A stretch of 64,000 bases of DNA, taken from Beggiatoa leptomitoformis. GTDB taxonomy: Bacteria; Pseudomonadota; Gammaproteobacteria; Beggiatoales; Beggiatoaceae. This document shows, piece by piece, positions 34,343 through 49,066 of this stretch. How positions within the stretch are numbered: the first letter of the stretch is position 1; each line of letters starts with the position of its first letter. The stretch covers positions 186,001-250,000 of the forward strand of contig NZ_CP012373.2 of assembly GCF_001305575.3 (NCBI RefSeq), in the 5' to 3' direction. The notes under the pieces were generated by a model that was not told the origin of the DNA, searched no databases, and saw only the letters and a program-made list of their open reading frames with translations. Both the position numbers and the translations under genes were made by a program.

Positions 34343-37300
34343 TTATCTTTTTGCTGTCTGTTGCATTTCTATCTGTTTTTTCAGAAAAGTTTTCAACTCA
34401 TTAATTTCCAATTTATCTGCTAAGGTATAAACATGGTTGATAAACAGGCTTAAGTCTGTTTCAGATGTTTTTAAACGTTGAATATATTCAATAATACCTA
34501 TAACATCTCCTGAAAATACAAGGTCTATCAGGGCTTCTAAATCAGAGATGGGTGGCGAGGTGAGTTGTTGATTAACATCTGCTGTGGATATTACCGTAGT
34601 GGCATAAGATGTGCCATAAACCCATTCTAGGTTTAAATGTTGCTGGAGGATGAAAAACAGTTGTTCTGCACGTACAGGCTTAGGGAGAAAAGCATGGCAA
34701 CCGTTGAGTAAACTTTGTTGTTGACGAATTTCAAACACACTGGCAGAGCTGGCAATGATGCAGGTATTGGCTAGGCTACTATTTTGTTTAATATGGTGTA
34801 TTAGGGTAAAGCCATCCATTTCTGGCATGTGTAAATCGGTAATGATTGCGACAGGGTGATAATTTTTTGCCAATGTTAGGGCTTGTGTGCCATTTTCTGC
34901 TTCTAGCACGATGCAACCAATATTTTTGAGTAGGTGGCTGACGACTTGTCGATTCTCCCGTAAATCATCCACCACTAAAATAATGGGATTTTGTCCTTTT
35001 ATCGATTTAATTTGTGCGGTTTTTTGGTCAGTTGTTTCAGCCTTTATAATACTGGGTATTTCAATTTCAAACCAGAAAGAGCTTCCCTTACCCAGTTGAC
35101 TTTCAACGTGTAAAATGCCGTCCATCATTTCAACCAGCCGTTTACTAATGGCTAGACCTAGCCCTGTTCCTTCTTTTTTCTTTAAGCGGTCGCCCACTTG
35201 TTCAAACGTGTCAAAAATGATGTTTAGATAGGTATTGTCAATACCTACACCAGTATCTCTCACTGTAAAACGGGCTTTTTTGTGTTGATAGTTGACATAA
35301 AAATCTACTTGCCCTTGTTCAGTAAATTTAATGGCGTTGTTTAGCAAATTAAGTAGTATTTGTCGGATGCGTTTCGGGTCGCCATGCACAACGTGCGGTA
35401 GGGTAGAAAGTGCGGTGTAGTTAAATTGTACTTCTTTCATAGTTGCCCGCATCGCGGATACATTGACAATGTCGCTGAGTAAATCAGGTAAGTTAAAATC
35501 TATGGGGGTAATTTCTAATTTGCCTGCTTCAATTTTGGCTAAGTCGAGAATATCTTCAATAAGGGTGAGTAAATATTCACCATTACGATAAATAGTCCGC
35601 GCATGGGCTTGTTGTTCTGACAATAGACTGGAATCGCGTTCTAATATTTGGGCAAACCCTAAAATGCCATTTAATGGGGTGCGCAGTTCATGGCTCATGG
35701 TTGCTAAAAATAAACTTTTTGCTTGGTTTGCTGCTTCAGCGGCTTCTTTTGCGTGGCGTAATTGCGCTTCACTATCGCGCAAGGCTTTTGTGCGTTCTTC
35801 AACTTCTTTTTCTAGGGTTTGATTGTAACTTTTTAACAGCGATTCCGCATCCTTACGCTTGGTAATATCTTGGATAGTGTTGAGGGCATAAAGGAGTTGT
35901 CCTTGTTCGTCAAAAATGGGATTACCCCATACTTCTAACGCAACCGTTTTGCCATTATAACGAATCTCCATATCATCTATGTTACTGGTTTCGCCCTGCA
36001 AGGCTTTGACTAATGGTAATTGTTCATAAGGATAGTGCTGTTGTGTACCCGCTAAATAGAGACCGTAATGCGCTTGCAAGCCTTCTAATGTAACGCCATT
36101 TAGTGGTTCACGCGCTAAAAGAATTCTCGCACAATGATTGTGATAGATTAATTTACCCTGTTTATCCACCATGCTGACACCAACGGGTATCACTTCTAAA
36201 AAGCGGGTAATTCTATCTATTTCTGATTGTTTTTGTTGTAAAGTACGGCGTTGGCGATGTAGATAATAAATACATAATAAAAATAAGGTTAAACCATAAA
36301 CCAAATAAGCCCACCATGTTTTCCACGGTGGGGGCAAAATGTGAATGGTAATGATTGCACCTGTTTCATTTTCATTCCACGTATTTTTATTGTTAGAGGC
36401 TAAAACATGGAAAACATAAGTTCCAACAGGTACATTGGTATAGTGCGCACTGCGTTTATTGCCTATATAATTCCATTCATGGTCAAAACCTTCTAAACGG
36501 TATTTATAAACATTTTTTTCTGTACGAATAAAATTGAGGGCTGTAAACTCAAAGGAGAAAAAAGTTTGTGTGTAATCCAGTGTAATTGTATTGGTTTCTA
36601 AAATGGATTGGGTAAGTGGGGGATTGGGTAAATCGGACATAGATTTATTAAAAATTTTAAAGTCTGTAATCATAACAACGGGAGGTGCAAGGTTTTCTGT
36701 AAAGTTGTCAGGTGAAAAAATGTTAAAACCATTGATACCGCCAAAAAACATGTCATTTTGCCGACTTTTAAAACAAGCAGGATTAAACTGATTGCTTTGT
36801 AAACCATCCATCACATCGTAGGTCATAATCAAGTGCGGTTCAGGTGTAAACTTCATTAATCCTTTGTTGCTGGCTAACCAAAGATTATTTTGTTTATCCT
36901 CAAGTAAGCAATGAATCGTATCGTTTGCTAAACCTTCACTTTCTTGATAACGCGTAAATTTTTCTGTTTGTGGATTAAATTGATTAAGTCCACCGCCTAA
37001 CGTTGCTATCCATAACGTGCCTGTGTTTGTTTCTAGGATGTTAGAAACAATGTCATTGCTCAAGCTGTTTTTATCATTATAGTTTGACTGGTATATTGTC
37101 CATTTTTTCGTGTCTAGTTGATATTTTTTTAATCCCATGCCTTGCGTTCCAACCCATAATGCACCCGTGTGATCTTCTAAAAGGCTTAAGACCGTATTTG
37201 CAGGATTAGAGGGATTACTAAAATAAGGTGCTGAAAAAATGTGTGTTTTGCGGTCAAAGGTAAATAGTCCTTGTCGTGTTCCAACCCAAAACGTGCCTTG

Positions 37301-38719
37301 GCTGTCCTCATATAGGGTGCGAATCATTTCTGCATTAGGCACATTTTCAACTAAATTAGGCTTTTGAATACGTATAAACTGTTCTGTTTTAGGAATAAAT
37401 TGATGTAATCCACCCGCATCAGTTCCTACCCATAAAACCCCTGTTTTGTCTTCATAAATTGCTCTAACTGTATTATTTATTAAGCTATTTTTATTTTCAG
37501 GTTCGTATTTATAAACAGTTACTTTTTTTCGTGTTGCATCATAACGGTTAAGCCCCCCGCCGTCTGTGCCTACCCATAATTCATTATGACTATCTACATA
37601 TAACGCCAGTACATTATTGTTACTTAAACTATTTTTCTCATTATTAGTATCAACAAAATAATGTGAGAAGATGGCATCATTACGGGCATCATAATAATTA
37701 ACCCCTCCCCCATCTGTCCCTACCCATAAAGTCCCCGCATTATCCCGATAAATAGAGAGAATGCGATTATTAGTTAAACTATATTTATCTTCTAATTCAT
37801 TGGTATAACGGGTAAATGTTTGCGTTTCCCAGTTTAGCCGATTTAATCCACCGCCATCAGTGCCTACCCATAAGTTTTTTTGTCTATCTTCCCCAATTGC
37901 CCAAATAACAGGGTGACTTAAACGGGTTTTATCGGTTGCATCAGCCGTGTAAGTATAAAAACTGTCTTTTTCACGCTCATAACGTAATAATCCCCCTGCG
38001 GTGCCTACCCATAAACGCCGTTGGCTGTCTTCAAACAGAGACGTTACACTGTTGGTTGCTTGATTGTTATTTGTTAAATAATGAATAAACTGCTTTGTTT
38101 TTCTATCAAACCGATTCAATCCATCTCCATCAGTGCCTATCCATAAGGTTTGGTAACTGTCTTCAAAAACTTGCCAGGTATTATTGCTACTTAAACTAGA
38201 TGGATTTGTCGAATCATGGGTGTAATGCGTAAATTGATTGGTTTTTTTATCTAAACAATTCAATCCGCCTTGTTGTGTACTTACCCACAGTAAGCCTGTA
38301 TGGTCTTCAACGATAGACCACACGTTATTGTCACTCAAACTAGCGGGATTGGTTGCATCGTGGAAATAACGTATGAATTGTTCTTGCTGACGGTCAAATC
38401 GATTTAACCCATTGGCAGTTCCTATCCATAAAGTTCCCGCTTTATCTTCATACAGTGTATTAATTTCATTATGACTGAGTGATGTTGTATTAAGCGGATT
38501 ATGACGGTAGCTGGTAAAACCATACCCATCATAACGATCCAAACCATCTTGTGTACCAAACCATAAAAAGCCGCGCTTGTCCTGCAAAATGGTAGAAACC
38601 TTATTTTGTGATAATCCTTCTTTTAGGGATAGGTTTCTAAATTTGATAGCTGGTTCTTCCGCAACGACGGAAAAAGACCATAAGCACCAACAAATTAACC
38701 AGCAGCATTGTTTATACAT
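34343..38719 (-). CDS. Hybrid histidine kinase with two-component propeller, PAS, HisKA, HATPase and receiver domains
   Basis: The 1,458-residue protein starts with a signal peptide (1-20), then more than a dozen reg_prop repeats of about 45 residues (LWVGTDGGGLNRYD type, 25-700), a Y_Y_Y domain (735-800), a membrane helix (808-828), PAS (845-945), a coiled segment, HisKA with MSHELRTPLNG (phosphoacceptor His1010), an HATPase domain (GDPKRIRQILLNLLNNAIKFT, GTGLGLAISKR) and a receiver (1244-1362, phosphoacceptor Asp1295). The C-terminal 80 residues are helical with no HPt-type His. Periplasmic ligand unknown; no cognate DNA-binding regulator is adjacent. Confidence 0.92.
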   Translation of the reverse strand: MYKQCCWLICWCLWSFSVVAEEPAIKFRNLSLKEGLSQNKVSTILQDKRGFLWFGTQDGLDRYDGYGFTSYRHNPLNTTSLSHNEINTLYEDKAGTLWIGTANGLNRFDRQQEQFIRYFHDATNPASLSDNNVWSIVEDHTGLLWVSTQQGGLNCLDKKTNQFTHYTHDSTNPSSLSSNNTWQVFEDSYQTLWIGTDGDGLNRFDRKTKQFIHYLTNNNQATNSVTSLFEDSQRRLWVGTAGGLLRYEREKDSFYTYTADATDKTRLSHPVIWAIGEDRQKNLWVGTDGGGLNRLNWETQTFTRYTNELEDKYSLTNNRILSIYRDNAGTLWVGTDGGGVNYYDARNDAIFSHYFVDTNNEKNSLSNNNVLALYVDSHNELWVGTDGGGLNRYDATRKKVTVYKYEPENKNSLINNTVRAIYEDKTGVLWVGTDAGGLHQFIPKTEQFIRIQKPNLVENVPNAEMIRTLYEDSQGTFWVGTRQGLFTFDRKTHIFSAPYFSNPSNPANTVLSLLEDHTGALWVGTQGMGLKKYQLDTKKWTIYQSNYNDKNSLSNDIVSNILETNTGTLWIATLGGGLNQFNPQTEKFTRYQESEGLANDTIHCLLEDKQNNLWLASNKGLMKFTPEPHLIMTYDVMDGLQSNQFNPACFKSRQNDMFFGGINGFNIFSPDNFTENLAPPVVMITDFKIFNKSMSDLPNPPLTQSILETNTITLDYTQTFFSFEFTALNFIRTEKNVYKYRLEGFDHEWNYIGNKRSAHYTNVPVGTYVFHVLASNNKNTWNENETGAIITIHILPPPWKTWWAYLVYGLTLFLLCIYYLHRQRRTLQQKQSEIDRITRFLEVIPVGVSMVDKQGKLIYHNHCARILLAREPLNGVTLEGLQAHYGLYLAGTQQHYPYEQLPLVKALQGETSNIDDMEIRYNGKTVALEVWGNPIFDEQGQLLYALNTIQDITKRKDAESLLKSYNQTLEKEVEERTKALRDSEAQLRHAKEAAEAANQAKSLFLATMSHELRTPLNGILGFAQILERDSSLLSEQQAHARTIYRNGEYLLTLIEDILDLAKIEAGKLEITPIDFNLPDLLSDIVNVSAMRATMKEVQFNYTALSTLPHVVHGDPKRIRQILLNLLNNAIKFTEQGQVDFYVNYQHKKARFTVRDTGVGIDNTYLNIIFDTFEQVGDRLKKKEGTGLGLAISKRLVEMMDGILHVESQLGKGSSFWFEIEIPSIIKAETTDQKTAQIKSIKGQNPIILVVDDLRENRQVVSHLLKNIGCIVLEAENGTQALTLAKNYHPVAIITDLHMPEMDGFTLIHHIKQNSSLANTCIIASSASVFEIRQQQSLLNGCHAFLPKPVRAEQLFFILQQHLNLEWVYGTSYATTVISTADVNQQLTSPPISDLEALIDLVFSGDVIGIIEYIQRLKTSETDLSLFINHVYTLADKLEINELKTFLKKQIEMQQTAKR

Positions 38720-40117: not shown

Positions 40118-40153
40118 AGGCGAATAGACAAGACCTATTCGCCTTTTTATTTT
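40118..40153 (+). terminator. Rho-independent terminator after acpS
   Basis: Arms 40118-40127 (AGGCGAATAG) and 40135-40144 pair exactly around a 7-base loop, with a T-rich tail after. Confidence 0.9.
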
Positions 40154-40385: not shown

Positions 40386-41288
40386 ATGGAAAAAGCCACT
40401 ATCCTACACATCTTTACCCCTGAAAAAAATGTTAGCCCTTTTGATGTCAACATGGCAATCGATGCGGGATTTGAACATATTATTCCCTACACATCAGTAG
40501 AAGTGAGTGAAATTGCAGGTTTGGTACAAGATGCAATTTTTTCCAGAGGCCCAAAAGGCGTAAAACGCACAGGTATTTTTATTGGAGGGCGTGATATTGC
40601 CGTTGCGGATGACATGCTAAAACAAGCCAAACAAGCAATGGTTCCCCCCTTTGAAGCCTCTGTCATGCTAGACCCTAGCGGTTCAGCAACCACTGCCGCA
40701 GGTTTAGTCGCCTTAGTGATTAAAGCCCTAAAAAGCTATCAAAAAACCCTACAAGGGGAACAAGTTGCAATTTTTGGTGGCACAGGTCCTGTGGGCTTAT
40801 GTGCGGGGGTTATTGCCGCCCGCTGTGGTGCTGACGTTCGTATCGTAAGCCATCGGGGGATGGAAGCTGCCTGCAAATTAGTAGATGCCTATAGTGAACG
40901 TTATGCAATCAAACTGTTACCTGCCGACGGTAGCACCCCGAAAAAACGCCTTGAGTTATTACAACAAACCACTGTTGCATTCAGCACTGCAAAAGCAGGC
41001 GTGCAAGTTTTAACGGCTGAAGATTTATTAACCGCCGACAAATTATTAGTGGCTGCCGATGTCAACGCCGTACCCCCTGAAGGGATTGCAGGGGTAGGTG
41101 TGATGGACAATGGTAAAGCCTTAAATACACCACTCCACGCGAAGGCTATCGGCGCGTTAGCCATTGGTAACGTCAAGTATCAAGTGCAACATAATCTCTT
41201 AAAAAATATGTTAGCAACAGATAAACCCGTTTATCTGGAATTACCCAGTGCATTTGAGCTAGCCTGTCAATTCGCAGAAAAATCATGA
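40386..41288 (+). CDS. mtdB: NAD(P)-dependent methylene-tetrahydromethanopterin dehydrogenase
   Basis: It oxidises methylene-H4MPT to methenyl-H4MPT in the bacterial formaldehyde-oxidation pathway. The 300-residue protein has ILHIFTPEKNVSPFDVNMA at the start, GIFIGGRD, a central ASVMLDPSGSATTAAG and a nucleotide-binding loop GGTGPVGLCAGVIAA with ADVRIVSHRG. It reads as the MtdB type rather than the folate-linked FolD. A strong GGAGG precedes the ATG. The stop overlaps the next start by four bases, forming an operon with an ATP-grasp protein and mch. Confidence 0.92.
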   Translation: MEKATILHIFTPEKNVSPFDVNMAIDAGFEHIIPYTSVEVSEIAGLVQDAIFSRGPKGVKRTGIFIGGRDIAVADDMLKQAKQAMVPPFEASVMLDPSGSATTAAGLVALVIKALKSYQKTLQGEQVAIFGGTGPVGLCAGVIAARCGADVRIVSHRGMEAACKLVDAYSERYAIKLLPADGSTPKKRLELLQQTTVAFSTAKAGVQVLTAEDLLTADKLLVAADVNAVPPEGIAGVGVMDNGKALNTPLHAKAIGALAIGNVKYQVQHNLLKNMLATDKPVYLELPSAFELACQFAEKS

Positions 41289-42391
41289 ACACCCCTGTGC
41301 TTATAGCAGCGGTTTCTGCCCGCTCTTTAGCAACAGCCGCACACAAAACTGGATTGCCTGTTTACGTACTGGATTTATATGATGATGTAGATACACAACG
41401 CATCACTCTTGCCAGTCGGCGCGTAAAAACAGAATCAGACGGTTTTGATGCGGTGGATTTATTAACCCAAGCACAAGAGTTATGTCCACCGCATACCCCA
41501 TTAGTCTATGGTGCAGGATTTGAACATTGTCCGCATTTGTTAGCTCAACTAGCGAGGGGACGGCACTTATACGGTAATTCGCCCGATGTTGTTCAAGCAG
41601 TAAAAGACCCGCGTTATTTTTTTTCATTACTCAAACGCTTAAATATTCCCCATCCAGAAACCCAATTAGAAATGCCCGATATTACAACTAACCGCTGGTT
41701 AGTTAAAACCATTGGGGGAACAGGTGGATATCATGTACATCCACTAAAACAATCCTTTAGCATTGGTGGGCAACCCTGTTATTACCAACGCTATTTGGAA
41801 GGTAAACCCCACTCAGTTTTATTTCTTGCCGATGGAAAACAATCGCGCGTCGTTGGCTATAACGAACAATGGATTAACGAAGAATTTGCCAGCGCGCCCT
41901 ATTTATATGCAGGGGCGATGAGTGTTGATGACATGCCTTTTCAAACTGAATTGACTGAGGTTGTTGCCTTACTAGTGCGTGAAACAGGGCTGCGTGGATT
42001 ATGTGGGATGGATATTCTTCTTAATGCAACGGGTTTTCATGTATTAGAAATTAACCCCCGTCCTCCCTCAACCTTTGAATTACATCAACAAAAAGGTGAT
42101 TTATTCTATTGGCACTTACAAGCCTGTGATGGTGTCTTACCTGAAATACTATTACATCCTCATCATTTACGGGCAAAAATTATTTTATATGCCCAACGAA
42201 CCCTCAAAATTCCCGCCCATCCTGAATGGCCTGCGTGGACGGCTGACCATCCACGACCCAATAGTATCATTCAGCGGGGAGAACCCATTTGTACGGTGTT
42301 CGCACAAGGTAAACAAAGTCAGCTCACCGTAATTAAAAGAGAAAAACAATTACAAACATGCTTAAAACGATGGCAGGAGATAGCAGTATGA
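41285..42391 (+). CDS. ATP-grasp family protein of the H4MPT cluster
   Basis: The 368-residue protein has an N-terminal Rossmann-like part ([23 protein letters not shown]), a middle substrate region and an ATP-grasp core, with the Mg-binding [13 protein letters not shown] (Glu255, Asn257). ATP-grasp enzymes join acids to amines through acyl phosphates; proteins of this type recur in bacterial methanopterin and methylofuran gene clusters, so a role in cofactor assembly is likely. The exact substrate is unknown. It overlaps mtdB and mch by four bases at each end. Confidence 0.75.
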
Positions 42392-43338
42392 ATAGTAGAT
42401 TAAGTATTAATGCCCTAACCCAACCACTGGTAACGCAACTGTTAAAAGAAGCAGAAAAATTGCGCCTATTAGTGGAAAAACCTCATTGCACCGTGATTGA
42501 TGCAGGCATTAATACCGCAGGCAGTATTCAAGCAGGACTACGCATTGCTGAAATTTGTATGGGTGGACTTGGGCATGTGCAACTCGTCAACACAGGACAA
42601 GGTGCGTGGTCATGGCAAGTACAAGTTAATACCAGTAATCCCGTGTTAGCTTGTTTAGGTAGTCAATACGCAGGCTGGAGTTTAAGCCATGAAAAATTTT
42701 ACGCATTAGGTTCAGGGGCAGGGCGCATTTTAGCCCAAAAAGAACCGCTGTTTGCTGAATTAGGACTGACAGATAACGCCACCAATACAACGCTTGTTTT
42801 AGAAGTTGATAAAATTCCCCCACAAGCAATTATCGACAAAATTGTCCAAGACTGTCGTTTACCCTCCGCCGAAGCCTTAACCCTGATTCTCACACCAACC
42901 CGCAGTTTAGCGGGATGCGTGCAAATTGTTGCACGGGTGTTAGAAGTCGCAATGCACAAAGTGCATACCCTACACTTTCCCCTAGAACGTGTTATAGACG
43001 GCATGGGAAGCGCGCCCTTGCCTCCTCCCGCAAAAGATTTTGTTACAGCAATGGGACGAACTAACGATGCCATTTTATTCGGTGGACAAGTACAACTATT
43101 TGTAACAGGCGACGACAGCGACGCAAAACAACTTGCCGAACAATTGCCCAGTAGTGCATCCCGCGATTATGGCAAACCCTTTGCAGAAATTTTTAAAGAC
43201 TATCAATATGATTTCTTTAAAATTGACCCCATGTTATTCAGCCCTGCTCAAGTTATTGTTACCGCCTTAGATAGTGGTCGGAGCTTCCGTGCGGGACAAA
43301 TAGACAACCAAGGTTTAGCGGTTTCTTTTGGGGAATAG
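42388..43338 (+). CDS. mch: Methenyltetrahydromethanopterin cyclohydrolase
   Basis: It hydrolyses methenyl-H4MPT to formyl-H4MPT, the step after MtdB. The 316-residue protein starts [15 protein letters not shown] and contains [41 protein letters not shown] and [20 protein letters not shown], all cyclohydrolase hallmarks. The ATG at 42388 overlaps the ATP-grasp stop; an earlier start at 42358 is inside that gene. Formyltransferase and fae genes are not in the window. Confidence 0.94.
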
Positions 43339-43664: not shown

Positions 43665-44582
43665 ATGCTCATGCCCCGTTTTGATGAATTGGTTCAACTT
43701 CGCTATCAAGCACATAGCGTTGGTTTAGTCTCTGCACAAAAAACACATACTCCCTTAAGTGGTTTATATGCATCCGTTTTTCGGGGGCAAGGAATGGATT
43801 TTGATGAAGTACGTGAATATCACTATGGTGATGAAATCAGACATATTGATTGGCGCGTTACCGCACGGGTACGTAAACCGTATTTAAAAACCTATCGAGA
43901 AGAACGCGAGCGTAATGTATTGTTATGTATAGATATGAGTGCGGTTATGCAGTTTGGCACACGCGGCACGTTTAAACACATTCAAGCGGCGCGGGCGGCA
44001 GCTTTATTAGGCTGGAGTGCGCAAGGGCATGGCGATAGAGTGGGCGGGCTTATTATTGGACAAGGTGAACCACGTTTATATCGTCCTAATCATTCACAAC
44101 GGGCTTTTTGGCACTTGTTAAAAGGGTTAAGTGACAGTACGACTGATGTAAAACCTAAGGATACAGCCCTACAACAGGGATTACACTTGTTACAACGCAA
44201 TGCACAGACAGGGGCTTTAGTATTCATTATCAGTGATTTTCATCAAATAGAAAAAGCAATGCTCGCGCAATTATTACGTCCCCTACATCAACGACACGAG
44301 ATTGTATTAATTACAATTGATGATGTTGCCGATTATACTCTGCCCGCTATTGGCAAGATTTATTTTACAGCAGCCGATGGCACAAACGCCTTGATTGATA
44401 CAGATAATCCCATAGGCTGTTTAGCTTATCGTCAAAGTTGGGAACAACAACGGGCAGAATTACAGACATTAACCCGTCAATTACAAATGGATTTTTTTAG
44501 TTTACGGACAGATGAAGATGTTTACACAGGGATTCTAAACGGATTGCGTCAACGCGCACGACGACAACAAGCACATTTTTAA
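43665..44582 (+). CDS. DUF58 domain protein
   Basis: The 305-residue protein has the DUF58 signature SGLYASVFRGQGMDFDEVREYHYGDEIRHIDWRVTARV (given here as the region of residues 31-65; key residues G, D, R, W) and a von Willebrand-like core with CIDMSAVMQFG and LVFIISDFHQ. DUF58 proteins are usually co-encoded with a MoxR ATPase and with DUF4381 and VWA proteins of the Bat cluster. Here the gene stands alone, with DUF4381 2.5 kb away. GGAGA precedes the ATG. Confidence 0.88.
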   Translation: MLMPRFDELVQLRYQAHSVGLVSAQKTHTPLSGLYASVFRGQGMDFDEVREYHYGDEIRHIDWRVTARVRKPYLKTYREERERNVLLCIDMSAVMQFGTRGTFKHIQAARAAALLGWSAQGHGDRVGGLIIGQGEPRLYRPNHSQRAFWHLLKGLSDSTTDVKPKDTALQQGLHLLQRNAQTGALVFIISDFHQIEKAMLAQLLRPLHQRHEIVLITIDDVADYTLPAIGKIYFTAADGTNALIDTDNPIGCLAYRQSWEQQRAELQTLTRQLQMDFFSLRTDEDVYTGILNGLRQRARRQQAHF

Positions 44583-44864: not shown

Positions 44865-46778
44865 TTAATGTTTCTGATGATGCTGGAATTGTTCGACCGC
44901 GAGTTGATAATACGCAGTGGTTAAATCCAGTTGATTTTTATCAACTTGCTGTAACGGTGTAAACCGCTCATGCGTTGCGTCATAAGTGACTTGGTTTGTT
45001 TTACCGTTTAAATCTAATAAAGATAAAATATCACCCTGTTTTAAAGCGACTGCATGATTATGATTAAACAGTAAAATACTGGGCTGTTCAGGAGGGAGAT
45101 TAAACACATTTTGCCCAAAGAAAGGGGCTTCATATTCCAACCCCAGTAATCCTAATACTGTTGGTGCAATATCCATTTGCCCGATGGGACGTTCTACAAC
45201 GGTTGGTTGTATATGGTTAGGCGCGAAAATTAATAAAGGGATTTGATAAGTCCGCAATGGAATATCTGCCTTGCCATACACCCGCGCTCCGTGGTCAGCA
45301 ACCACTATAAACACAGTTTGATTAAACCACTCTTTTTGACGTGCCGCTTCTATAAACTTTCCTAGCGCGTAATCTGCATAACGAATACCCGCATCACGCC
45401 CGCCACCTGTCGCGGGAATTTGTGGAATACCTTCAGGAAAAGTAAATGGTTTATGATTAGACGTTGTCATAATTATAGAGAAAAAGGGTTGTTTTTTAGC
45501 CGTTTGTTGGTCGTAATAATTCAACGCATGATTGAATAAATCCTCATCACTCACCCCCCAAATATTGGCAAAATGTGGAGGGGGCATATCGCTGCGGTCT
45601 TGCACCGCAAACCCATTGTGGCTATAGAAATAATTCATATTGTCAAAATAGCCATAACCACCGTATAAAAAGCTACTTTGATAACCTTGCGCTTGCATAA
45701 CGGTTCCCCAATTGGGCATATCTTCATTATTAGGGCGTTTTAAAACCGATTCGCTAGGAATTGGCGGAAATGACAAGGTAATTGCTTCTAAACCACGCAC
45801 TGTACGTGTACCTGTTGCATAAGCGTGATTAAATAACATCCCTTGTTGTGCTAATTGGTCAAAATAAGGGGTGAGTTTACGATCATCGCCTAAACAACTA
45901 ACAAACTCTGAACCAAATGATTCTTCAACAACAACAACGACATTTAATTTACCTAATCCTTGTGGATTGGCGGGAAAATGTCGGTCTATATGTCGCTCTG
46001 CTAGATGTGTAAATTCGCCACCACCGACTTTTAAGCTGTTCGTAAGGGTATCGAATAATGCTGTCGTGTCACCCGTGCGATAGTAAAGATGGTAATCTAA
46101 CTCATTGGTTGATAAGGCTTGAAAAAAGCTACTAACCCCATTGACGGTTATTTCATTTGCAACCCGATTTTCTGAGAAAGCAAGGCTATTCGTCGAAACG
46201 CTGTATGCAAAAACCCCGATACAGGATAAATGTAGCCCAAGAAAAGCAAACCGCTGTTTTACAGTTACTTTTTGCGCTAAAAACGGAGATAGCTTTTGCC
46301 AACCTGCGTAAAGCAAGGCGAGAACTAATAAGAAGTTAAATGCCAAAACAGCGGGAACAGGGTATGACTCCCAAATATTAATAAATACTTCATGTGGATA
46401 AATTAGATAATCTACCGCAACCAGATTAAAGCGCGCATTAAATTCTTCAAAAAAGAAAAACTCGGCTTCAACCAGATAAACAAAGCTGTAGGCATAGAGA
46501 AACAGAAGTATCAGGCTGAGTATTTTCCCTGATTTTCCTTGAAACCAACGATTAGGAATAACTAGTAAAAACAGTGATAATGGTAAAAGTAAATAAGTTA
46601 AAACAACGCCATCATTAACCAATCCTGCTAATAAGATAAGTGGCAAGGCATACGGTGTTACATCTGCATCTGTTCCAAATTTAACCCACAAGGTAACACG
46701 CAATAATGTGGATAAAATCAGATAAATGACTATTAAAAACGGGATAAAGTTATAGCGACTGTTGAATAAATTTCTCAC
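44865..46778 (-). CDS. LTA-synthase-family phosphoglycerol-transferase-like membrane protein
   Basis: The 637-residue product has five N-terminal membrane segments (about 12-210) and a periplasmic sulfatase-fold domain (about 270-560) with VVVEESFGSEF, the probable nucleophile Thr in YATGTRTVRGLEA, and metal ligands in VVADHGARV. Gram-negative members may decorate periplasmic glucans or other envelope polymers with phosphoglycerol; the substrate here is unknown. The start is GTG at 46778; the nearby ATG at 46791 is out of frame. It is transcribed against the DUF58 gene, with a terminator between them. Confidence 0.87.
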   Translation of the reverse strand: MRNLFNSRYNFIPFLIVIYLILSTLLRVTLWVKFGTDADVTPYALPLILLAGLVNDGVVLTYLLLPLSLFLLVIPNRWFQGKSGKILSLILLFLYAYSFVYLVEAEFFFFEEFNARFNLVAVDYLIYPHEVFINIWESYPVPAVLAFNFLLVLALLYAGWQKLSPFLAQKVTVKQRFAFLGLHLSCIGVFAYSVSTNSLAFSENRVANEITVNGVSSFFQALSTNELDYHLYYRTGDTTALFDTLTNSLKVGGGEFTHLAERHIDRHFPANPQGLGKLNVVVVVEESFGSEFVSCLGDDRKLTPYFDQLAQQGMLFNHAYATGTRTVRGLEAITLSFPPIPSESVLKRPNNEDMPNWGTVMQAQGYQSSFLYGGYGYFDNMNYFYSHNGFAVQDRSDMPPPHFANIWGVSDEDLFNHALNYYDQQTAKKQPFFSIIMTTSNHKPFTFPEGIPQIPATGGGRDAGIRYADYALGKFIEAARQKEWFNQTVFIVVADHGARVYGKADIPLRTYQIPLLIFAPNHIQPTVVERPIGQMDIAPTVLGLLGLEYEAPFFGQNVFNLPPEQPSILLFNHNHAVALKQGDILSLLDLNGKTNQVTYDATHERFTPLQQVDKNQLDLTTAYYQLAVEQFQHHQKH

Positions 46779-47998: not shown

Positions 47999-49066
47999 AT
48001 GCGTTTTGTACGCCATCAATTACTTGTAACCGCAATCGCGGCAACCTTTACTTTTGGTAGTTGTTTTAGTTCACTCACCACGGCAGCCGAAAAAGTGCGC
48101 TGGCGTGTACCTGTTGCGTTTGCTTCTGACTTACCGGGTTTAGGTGATCCTATCACTTATGTCGCTGATAGCTTGATGAAAGCCAGTGGCGGTGATATTG
48201 AATTGCGTGTATCAGAACCGGGTAAACTCGTTCCGCCGTTTGAAATTACGGATGCAGTAAAAAATAATAAAGTGCCTGCGGGCTATACGTGGATAGGCTA
48301 TGACCAAGGCAAAATTCCTGCCTCGCCTTTGTTTGCAGCCGTTCCTTTTGGTATGGAGCCTTGGGAATATACCGCATGGTGGTATGAAAGCGGTGGTCGA
48401 CAATTAGGCGAAGAGGTGTATGGCAAGCAAAATGTACATCCTATTTTGTGTAGCATTATTGGCCCTGAAACAGCGGGTTGGTTTCGTAATCCGATTAATG
48501 TCTTAGATGATTTAAAAGGCTTAAAAATTCGTTTTGCAGGCATTGGCGGGCGTGTTATTCAACAAGTTGGTGCGTCCGTTACCATGTTACCGGGGGGAGA
48601 AATTTTCCAAGCCCTAGAAAAAGGGGCGATTGATGCGACCGAATTTTCTATGCCTGCCATTGACCAAAAATTGGGATTTGACAAGATTGTTAAATACAAT
48701 TACTTCCCCGGATGGCATCAAGCCTTTACGGCTAGCTACTTACTGGTGAATAAGGATGAGTGGGGCAAACTCAGTGAAGCGAATAAAACCATGATTGATA
48801 TGGCATGTACCGCAGCCGTCGCACGTTCTACGGCTAAAGGGGAAGCCATACAAGGTGGTGTAATTAAAACGTTGCAAGAGAAAGGGGTGACTGCGAGTAA
48901 GCTACCAGAACCTATATTGCGTGAACTACAAAAAGTAACCCAGCAAGTAATGGCTGAAGAAGCCTCAAAAGATGCTGATTTTAAAAAGGTGATGGAAAGC
49001 CAGAAAGCCTTTATGGAAACTTACAAAATTTGGAAGGGTTTGGCGTATTTACCACGTGATTTTTAA
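47999..49066 (+). CDS. dctP: TRAP transporter substrate-binding protein
   Basis: The 355-residue periplasmic protein captures a carboxylate for the dctQM permease. It has a signal peptide (cut after TAAA, near residue 30), and the TRAP signature FRNPINVLDDLKGLKIRFAG with the family Arg, then LPGGEIFQALEKGAIDATEF. The sequence is closest in style to 2-oxo acid or mannitol/chloroaromatic-type TRAP binding proteins, so the exact substrate is open. AAGGAG precedes the ATG. A hairpin separates it from dctQ. Confidence 0.9.
   Translation: MRFVRHQLLVTAIAATFTFGSCFSSLTTAAEKVRWRVPVAFASDLPGLGDPITYVADSLMKASGGDIELRVSEPGKLVPPFEITDAVKNNKVPAGYTWIGYDQGKIPASPLFAAVPFGMEPWEYTAWWYESGGRQLGEEVYGKQNVHPILCSIIGPETAGWFRNPINVLDDLKGLKIRFAGIGGRVIQQVGASVTMLPGGEIFQALEKGAIDATEFSMPAIDQKLGFDKIVKYNYFPGWHQAFTASYLLVNKDEWGKLSEANKTMIDMACTAAVARSTAKGEAIQGGVIKTLQEKGVTASKLPEPILRELQKVTQQVMAEEASKDADFKKVMESQKAFMETYKIWKGLAYLPRDF

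What the first reader, a model, noticed from the sequence alone, without database searches (positions are those of the whole stretch)
40386..43338. H4MPT one-carbon operon in a likely sulfur bacterium
mtdB, an ATP-grasp protein and mch overlap by four bases each, giving a tight operon for methylene- to formyl-H4MPT conversion. This pathway is best known from methylotrophs. The fae and formyltransferase genes are not in the window. The ATP-grasp protein may make an H4MPT or methylofuran side chain.
Basis: partly seen in the sequence, partly recalled or inferred. Interest (0 to 1): 0.55.

Follow-up and report, generated by a model that had tools for sequence, protein, structure and literature searches.

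The report
Formaldehyde-oxidation operon in a sulfur bacterium
Three tightly packed genes encode two steps of a well-known formaldehyde-burning pathway and one enzyme that probably helps build its coenzyme; the other main steps are encoded elsewhere in the same genome, so this is an ordinary working part of a known methanol-oxidation system.

Summary
Observation confirmed: mtdB (40386-41288), an ATP-grasp gene (41285-42391) and mch (42388-43338) are intact and overlap as ATGA at both junctions. Not a relic: the same closed 4.27 Mb genome encodes two Fae, FhcA, FhcC, FhcD, FhcB (full length but below its curated cut-off), two XoxF-like dehydrogenases, an Fds-type formate dehydrogenase and RuBisCO. 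FTHFS gave no match; hexulose-6-phosphate synthase stayed far below cut-off. Best reading: formaldehyde oxidation to CO2, with carbon entering by the Calvin cycle (inferred). The ATP-grasp protein is best read as OrfY/MyfA, a glutamate ligase of methylofuran; a closer MfnD relative and a MyfB relative lie elsewhere. The block is the front half of a standard proteobacterial island. A MyfB relative follows mch in 45 of 46 other-family genomes examined but in neither of the two genomes of the window's genus; here it lies about 1.9 Mb away beside fae. Split islands are known elsewhere (Methylosinus). In the family, mch passes its cut-off in 2 of 42 genomes, both of this genus. Genome size points to Beggiatoa leptomitoformis D-402, whose C1 metabolism has a 2018 paper (title seen only). 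Ordinary; modest evolutionary interest.

The parts
40118..40144 (+). terminator-like hairpin (10 pairs, T-rich tail) after acpS; suggests that the operon starts on its own downstream of it
   Evidence: pattern match only (4 such sites found in the region, 4.3 expected in shuffles)
40386..41288 (+). mtdB-type methylene-H4MPT dehydrogenase (300 aa)
   Evidence: Mpt_N; solved MtdA-type sequences 6tlk, 6tge, 1lu9, about 129 bits; MtdB rather than MtdA by island context, not by a sequence test
41285..42391 (+). ATP-grasp ligase, OrfY/MyfA type (368 aa): predicted methylofuran glutamate ligase
   Evidence: PMC8141765
42388..43338 (+). mch, methenyl-H4MPT cyclohydrolase (316 aa from the ATGA start)

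Best explanation
A working operon of the H4MPT-linked formaldehyde oxidation pathway. Shown from sequence: XoxF-like PQQ dehydrogenases, Fae, MtdB-type dehydrogenase, Mch, FhcABCD homologues and an Fds-type formate dehydrogenase are encoded in the genome. Inferred: methanol (or another formaldehyde source) gives formaldehyde; Fae loads it on H4MPT; MtdB makes methenyl-H4MPT and NAD(P)H; Mch makes formyl-H4MPT; Fhc, with methylofuran as its bound arm, releases formate; Fds oxidises formate to CO2; carbon is fixed by RuBisCO. The middle gene is MyfA: it adds a glutamate (the second, by the M. flagellatus mutant) to the methylofuran precursor before MyfB extends the chain. The ATGA overlaps suggest that its translation is coupled to that of its two neighbours.
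For: Over curated cut-off: Mch, Fae twice, FhcD, FhcA, FhcC, TIGR03123, Fdh-alpha, formate dehydrogenase gamma and FdhD. FhcB matches along its length at 286.9 bits. Three PQQ alcohol dehydrogenases pass their cut-off, two of them with the WDYDG motif, a cytochrome c neighbour and a binding-protein-like neighbour. An ATP-grasp relative is the next hit upstream of mch in 39 of 46 genomes of other families. The window protein matches MfnD weakly and in part (37.6 bits) while a paralogue matches better (87.1 bits), the pattern PMC8141765 describes for MyfA and a second MfnD homologue. D243, E255, N257 and R259 are kept in at least 37 of 41 sequences. FTHFS no match, HxlA 24.6 bits against 200, RuBisCO present.
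Against: No expression or enzyme data were seen. FhcB is below its curated cut-off (327.8), the NuoF-like Fds subunit is below the NuoF cut-offs, and one XoxF-side binding protein is below Pfam's cut-off. mptG, orf17, orf19-22, mfnA, dmrA, PQQ genes and most serine-cycle genes were not searched. MtdB and MtdA are not separated by sequence here. No solved structure matches the ATP-grasp protein by sequence; the MyfA name rests on weak similarity plus position, and 7 of 46 other genomes lack an ATP-grasp hit upstream of mch.
Confidence: 0.9

Rival explanations
1. The operon serves formaldehyde detoxification only, without growth on methanol.
For: That the same enzymes protect cells from formaldehyde is general knowledge; neither a RuMP synthase over its cut-off (24.6 vs 200 bits) nor FTHFS was found.
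Against: Two XoxF-like dehydrogenases with cytochrome and binding-protein-like neighbours, an Fds-type formate dehydrogenase and RuBisCO give a route to energy and carbon. PMC11172852 (passages) says that methylotrophic growth was shown for the Beggiatoa group, citing Jewell 2008 and Orlova 2018.
Confidence: 0.15
2. The ATP-grasp protein is the MfnD-type tyramine/tyrosine-glutamate ligase (first glutamate), not MyfA.
For: Its best NCBIfam match is MfnD (37.6 bits), and it shares the ATP-grasp_3 domain with the MfnD-like paralogue.
Against: The paralogue, next to an MfnF-like gene and pabB, matches MfnD over nearly its length (87.1 bits); the window protein matches only with residues 134-259. 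Neither reaches the 400-bit cut-off.
Confidence: 0.1
3. A degenerate relic of a lost pathway.
For: The island is split, with parts scattered over the genome.
Against: The three frames are open; mtdB and mch are 91% identical to the sister-genome copies; the other main pathway genes are present.
Confidence: 0.02

Closest known systems
H4MPT/methylofuran formaldehyde oxidation island of methylotrophic proteobacteria (mtdB, orfY, mch, orf5, orf7, fae, orf17 ...)
   Same: Same three genes in the same order. The named Hyphomicrobiales MAG locus L003 has mtdB-ATP-grasp-mch-RimK-like-CitG-like-fae with fhc genes beside it.
   Different: In this genome the island is cut after mch; RimK-like/myfB-CitG-like-fae lies about 1.9 Mb away, and fhcDC, fhcA and fhcB are three separate places. 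Splitting as such is not new: PMC3615186 (passages) reports five separate islands in Methylosinus trichosporium.
MyfA (OrfY), methylofuran glutamate ligase (PMC8141765)
   Same: ATP-grasp protein with partial MfnD similarity, beside a distinct closer MfnD homologue in the same genome; here the gene lies between mtdB and mch.
   Different: Substrate not tested; no direct sequence comparison with the M. flagellatus protein was made.
C1 metabolism of Beggiatoa leptomitoformis D-402 (Orlova et al. 2018, Indian J Microbiol 58:415; title seen in a reference list only)
   Different: Not readable here, so whether it named this operon or MyfA is unknown.

Membership tests
Mch (methenyl-H4MPT cyclohydrolase) | full-length match over curated cut-off | tested here: met
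   397.7 vs 228.8 bits, profile 1-313 of 313
MtdB | methylene-H4MPT dehydrogenase N-terminal domain | tested here: met
   Mpt_N 131.2 vs 27 bits
MtdB | specific for H4MPT, not folate (separates MtdB from MtdA) | not testable with these tools
   needs an assay; context only
MyfA/OrfY | ATP-grasp domain with partial MfnD similarity, distinct from a closer MfnD paralogue | tested here: met
MyfA/OrfY | gene lies with mtdB and mch | tested here: met
   for this gene; an ATP-grasp relative is the next hit upstream of mch in 39 of 46 genomes of other families
MyfA/OrfY | adds glutamate to the methylofuran precursor | not testable with these tools
   inferred from an M. flagellatus mutant by LC-MS (PMC8141765), not shown for this protein
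MfnD equivalog (archaeal) | NF040722 over its cut-off of 400 bits | tested here: not met
   37.6 bits, partial
H4MPT formaldehyde oxidation pathway | fae, mtdB, mch, fhcA, fhcC and fhcD in one genome | tested here: met
H4MPT formaldehyde oxidation pathway | fhcB over its curated cut-off | tested here: inconclusive
   profile 2-421 of 421 matched at 286.9 bits, cut-off 327.8; the L003 island's fhcB region matches it at 31% identity
RuMP methylotroph | hexulose-6-phosphate synthase | tested here: not met
   24.6 vs 200 bits; the same search rings in 12 of 14 controls, over the cut-off in 2
Serine-cycle methylotroph | FTHFS for formate entry | tested here: not met
   no match (3 of 14 controls over the cut-off); other serine-cycle genes not tested

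The most novel reading that the evidence does not exclude
Within its family the H4MPT module is confined to the genus of the window (freshwater Beggiatoa), which gained it as one island from another gammaproteobacterial lineage and then broke it into at least six loci while keeping mtdB-myfA-mch as one mobile block. There it drives autotrophic methylotrophy: methanol is burned wholly to CO2, which is fixed by RuBisCO beside sulfur oxidation.
Probability: 0.4. Interest if true: 0.3.

Novelty: already known. Interest (0 to 1): 0.15.

Why it matters
It shows that the seemingly lone three-gene operon belongs to a near-complete formaldehyde-oxidation pathway in a sulfur bacterium, and it turns an unnamed ATP-grasp gene into a testable methylofuran glutamate ligase. 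The patchy spread within the family and the split island make this genus a handy case for gain versus loss of an ancient C1 module. It does not change what is known of the pathway.

Tried and rejected
Relic hypothesis: rejected once fae, fhc, xoxF-like and fds genes were found. ATP-grasp as an H4MPT side-chain enzyme (MptN type): rejected for the window protein, because the MptN-like protein is the one at L004 (196.4 bits to MptN, below its 350-bit cut-off) and PMC8141765 argues that M. extorquens, which makes dH4MPT, needs no MptN activity. RNA families in the window: none at the gathering threshold. A protein scan for the ATP-grasp gene in genome contigs gave only one locus, so synteny was taken from the genome search. 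The mch tree does not place the genus below class level; the ATP-grasp tree puts it with family f12 of the same class (97/97), but that is one fast-evolving gene whose letter make-up departs from the model in many rows, the sister genome's among them. Papers not held: Orlova 2018, Jewell 2008, Kalyuzhnaya 2005. Two papers on the species were searched for C1 terms and gave nothing relevant (PMC7356093; PMC11507549; passages only). Structure prediction was not run, since it would not settle the substrate.

Full report
WHAT IS THERE. The three ORFs are intact on the + strand at the coordinates given: 40386-41288, 41285-42391 and an ORF ending at 43338. Both junctions are ATGA overlaps. The ORF list starts mch at 42358, but 42388 is the better start: the protein from 42388 aligns over its whole length with the sister genome's mch, which also begins in an ATGA overlap; the sister's mtdB and ATP-grasp genes are 3 bases apart instead. 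A terminator-like hairpin at 40118-40144 follows acpS (a pattern match, no more sites than in shuffles), so the operon probably has its own promoter in the roughly 240 bases before mtdB. No promoter was shown. A DUF58 gene starts at 43665, about 330 bases after mch.

WHAT THE PROTEINS ARE. Mch matches its equivalog model end to end (397.7 bits against 228.8) and four distinct solved Mch sequences. The first protein carries the Mpt_N domain and matches three distinct solved MtdA-type sequences at about 129 bits; I call it MtdB from context, not from a test that separates the two. The ATP-grasp protein has an ATP-grasp_3 domain (79.3 bits), a weak partial match to MfnD (37.6 bits against 400, residues 134-259) and no solved relative by sequence. 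Across 41 homologues (window included) D243, N257 and R259 are invariant and E255 is kept in 37; that such residues bind ATP/Mg in ATP-grasp enzymes is recalled knowledge.

THE REST OF THE PATHWAY. The window is positions 186001-250000 of a single 4,265,317-base contig. In the same genome: Fae twice (232.8 and 194.8 bits over a 27-bit cut-off; 237.3 and 137.4 over 118.05); FhcD (445.5 over 292.6) with FhcC next to it (273.2 over 130.65); FhcA (740.2 over 392.75); FhcB (286.6-286.9 bits over nearly the whole profile, but below its 327.8 cut-off). Controls: of 14 well-known genomes, Fae, FhcD and TIGR03123 ring in 2 each (both methanogens), FhcA in 11 and FhcB in 10, each over the cut-off in 2. 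Three PQQ alcohol dehydrogenases pass their cut-off, which none of the 14 controls does. Two of them have WDYDG (recalled as typical of lanthanide-type XoxF), a cytochrome c neighbour and a binding-protein-like neighbour, the second of which (23 bits) is under Pfam's 26.4. The third has WDFSG. A cluster of FdhD, Fdh-alpha, a NuoF-like and a formate dehydrogenase gamma subunit is present (FdhD 222.8 over 140.9; alpha 924.7 over 666.25; gamma 240.2 over 198; the NuoF-like one is under the NuoF cut-offs); that it is NAD-linked is inferred. A RuBisCO large subunit is present (454.9 bits; 791 over 438) with a 139-aa ORF behind it that I read by eye as the small subunit. FTHFS: no match, while 3 of 14 controls pass the cut-off. 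Hexulose-6-phosphate synthase: 24.6 bits against 200; the same search rings in 12 of 14 controls and passes the cut-off in 2.

THE ATP-GRASP GENE. PMC8141765 (abstract, passages, and sections 4 and 10 read) renamed OrfY and Orf5 as MyfA and MyfB: both are ATP-grasp proteins needed for methylofuran. A myfA mutant of M. flagellatus piles up MYFR-Glu0 and Glu1; a myfB mutant of M. extorquens piles up MYFR-Glu2. MyfA resembles MfnD in part, and several strains hold a second protein closer to MfnD; MyfB resembles MptN. This genome fits: the window protein resembles MfnD in part; the paralogue at L019 8540-9565 resembles it more (87.1 bits) and lies beside a TIGR03123/MfnF-like gene (327.1 over 244.1; MfnF model 123.9 against 520) and a pabB (TIGR00553 359.3 over 328.4); the L004 protein resembles MptN (196.4 against 350) and lies beside a CitG-like gene and fae. 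PMC3615186 (passages) gives mch-orf5-orf7-fae1 as an island in Methylosinus trichosporium, and PMC4109929 (one table passage) lists mptG, mtdB, orfY, mch, orf5, 7, 17, 1, 9, pabB for Methylophilaceae, a list that may or may not be the map order but holds these three blocks in sequence. So the window gene is best read as MyfA, a methylofuran enzyme. Against a universal role: Methylosinus trichosporium lacks orfY, and no methylofuran was detected there.

NEIGHBOURHOOD IN OTHER GENOMES. Mch was searched in 369 genomes of the class (48 over the cut-off, own included) and 398 of the phylum (18 over the cut-off, own included). Loci were obtained for 29 of 47 and 17 of 17 others over the cut-off, 46 of 64 in all; the 18 without loci are the lower-scoring ones of the class and were not examined. 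By tblastn with this genome's proteins at E <= 1e-4 a MyfB relative is the next hit after mch in 45 of 46 (exception L068), an ATP-grasp relative the next hit before mch in 39 of 46 (missing in L031, L034, L047, L048, L065, L070, L072), and mtdB > ATP-grasp > mch is visible in 35 of 46. G756, split over two contigs (L074, L075), is counted as one. The named alphaproteobacterial MAG locus L003 carries the whole island plus fhc genes. In the two genomes of the window's own genus no MyfB relative follows mch (0 of 2; none in the 6.6 kb after the sister's mch). In the window's genome it is about 1.9 Mb away in the fae operon. Where it is in the sister genome was not searched. The surroundings differ too: acpS and DUF58 here; yidC-like and mnmG-like genes in the sister (names read by eye). 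So the island was probably cut after mch and the three-gene block moved as a unit. Dispersal as such is known: PMC3615186 describes five separate islands in Methylosinus.

SPREAD AND DESCENT. In the family, 2 of 42 genomes have mch over the cut-off, both of the window's genus; 30 of the 42 are at least 90% complete and at most 5% contaminated. A third, G017 of another genus, has a weaker match (113.5 bits, under the cut-off). The mch tree (48 rows; G017 and G756 were left out) puts the two copies inside a well-supported group of 36 rows, 32 of the same class and 2 of another class of the phylum, unresolved further. The ATP-grasp tree (41 rows, the seven genomes without that gene dropping out) joins them to two genomes of family f12 of the same class (97/97), with the caution that many rows have an odd letter make-up. 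Gain from another gammaproteobacterial lineage fits, but repeated loss within the family is not excluded. The ATP-grasp gene changes faster than its neighbours: 66% identity between the two species against 91% for mtdB and mch.

WHO IT IS AND WHAT IS IN PRINT. Its length, 4,265,317 bases, is 21 from the 4,265,296 reported for Beggiatoa leptomitoformis D-402T (PMC4675945, whole text) and 969 from D-401 (PMC5920184, whole text); this is inference from size alone. [quoted passage not shown] Both are not held, so I saw only their titles. Topic searches for Beggiatoa with methylotrophy and methanol (28 papers, 20 listed), tetrahydromethanopterin (11) and methanol dehydrogenase (11) show nothing on this operon by title or abstract start; of these I opened only PMC11172852. 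PMC5020050 (passages) treats the wide spread of H4MPT genes in bacteria as established.

VERDICT. Real, functional-looking and ordinary: a known pathway, in an organism group already reported to grow on methanol, with a probably published C1 reconstruction. The additions here are the MyfA reading, the split island and the genus-limited spread in the family.

Noticed in passing
L027 (G017:C32:4741-5427): A weaker, partial mch match (113.5 bits, below cut-off) in another genus of the same family, without the usual neighbours within about 1.5 kb; could be a divergent type or a stray contig.
   Followed up: no
window 34343-38719 (-): A 1458-aa ORF with many repeated blade-like motifs followed by sensor kinase and receiver regions, by eye a hybrid two-component sensor.
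   Followed up: no
window 44865-46778 (-): A 637-aa membrane sulfatase-type ORF with only sub-cut-off matches, best to a lipoteichoic acid synthase model and a phosphoglycerol transferase model.
   Followed up: partly
window 47999-49066 (+): TRAP transporter substrate-binding protein (TRAP_S1 58.1 bits over cut-off 50).
   Followed up: no
window 41285-42391 vs L028 11295-12407: The ATP-grasp gene is 66% identical between the two genomes of the genus while mtdB and mch beside it are 91% identical.
   Followed up: partly
L005 9062-9595: A second, divergent fae (35% identical to the L003 fae against 72% for the main fae) near chemotaxis-type ORFs (by eye).
   Followed up: no
L016 9166-11142: A third PQQ alcohol dehydrogenase with WDFSG instead of WDYDG, next to response-regulator and histidine-kinase ORFs (by eye).
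   Followed up: partly
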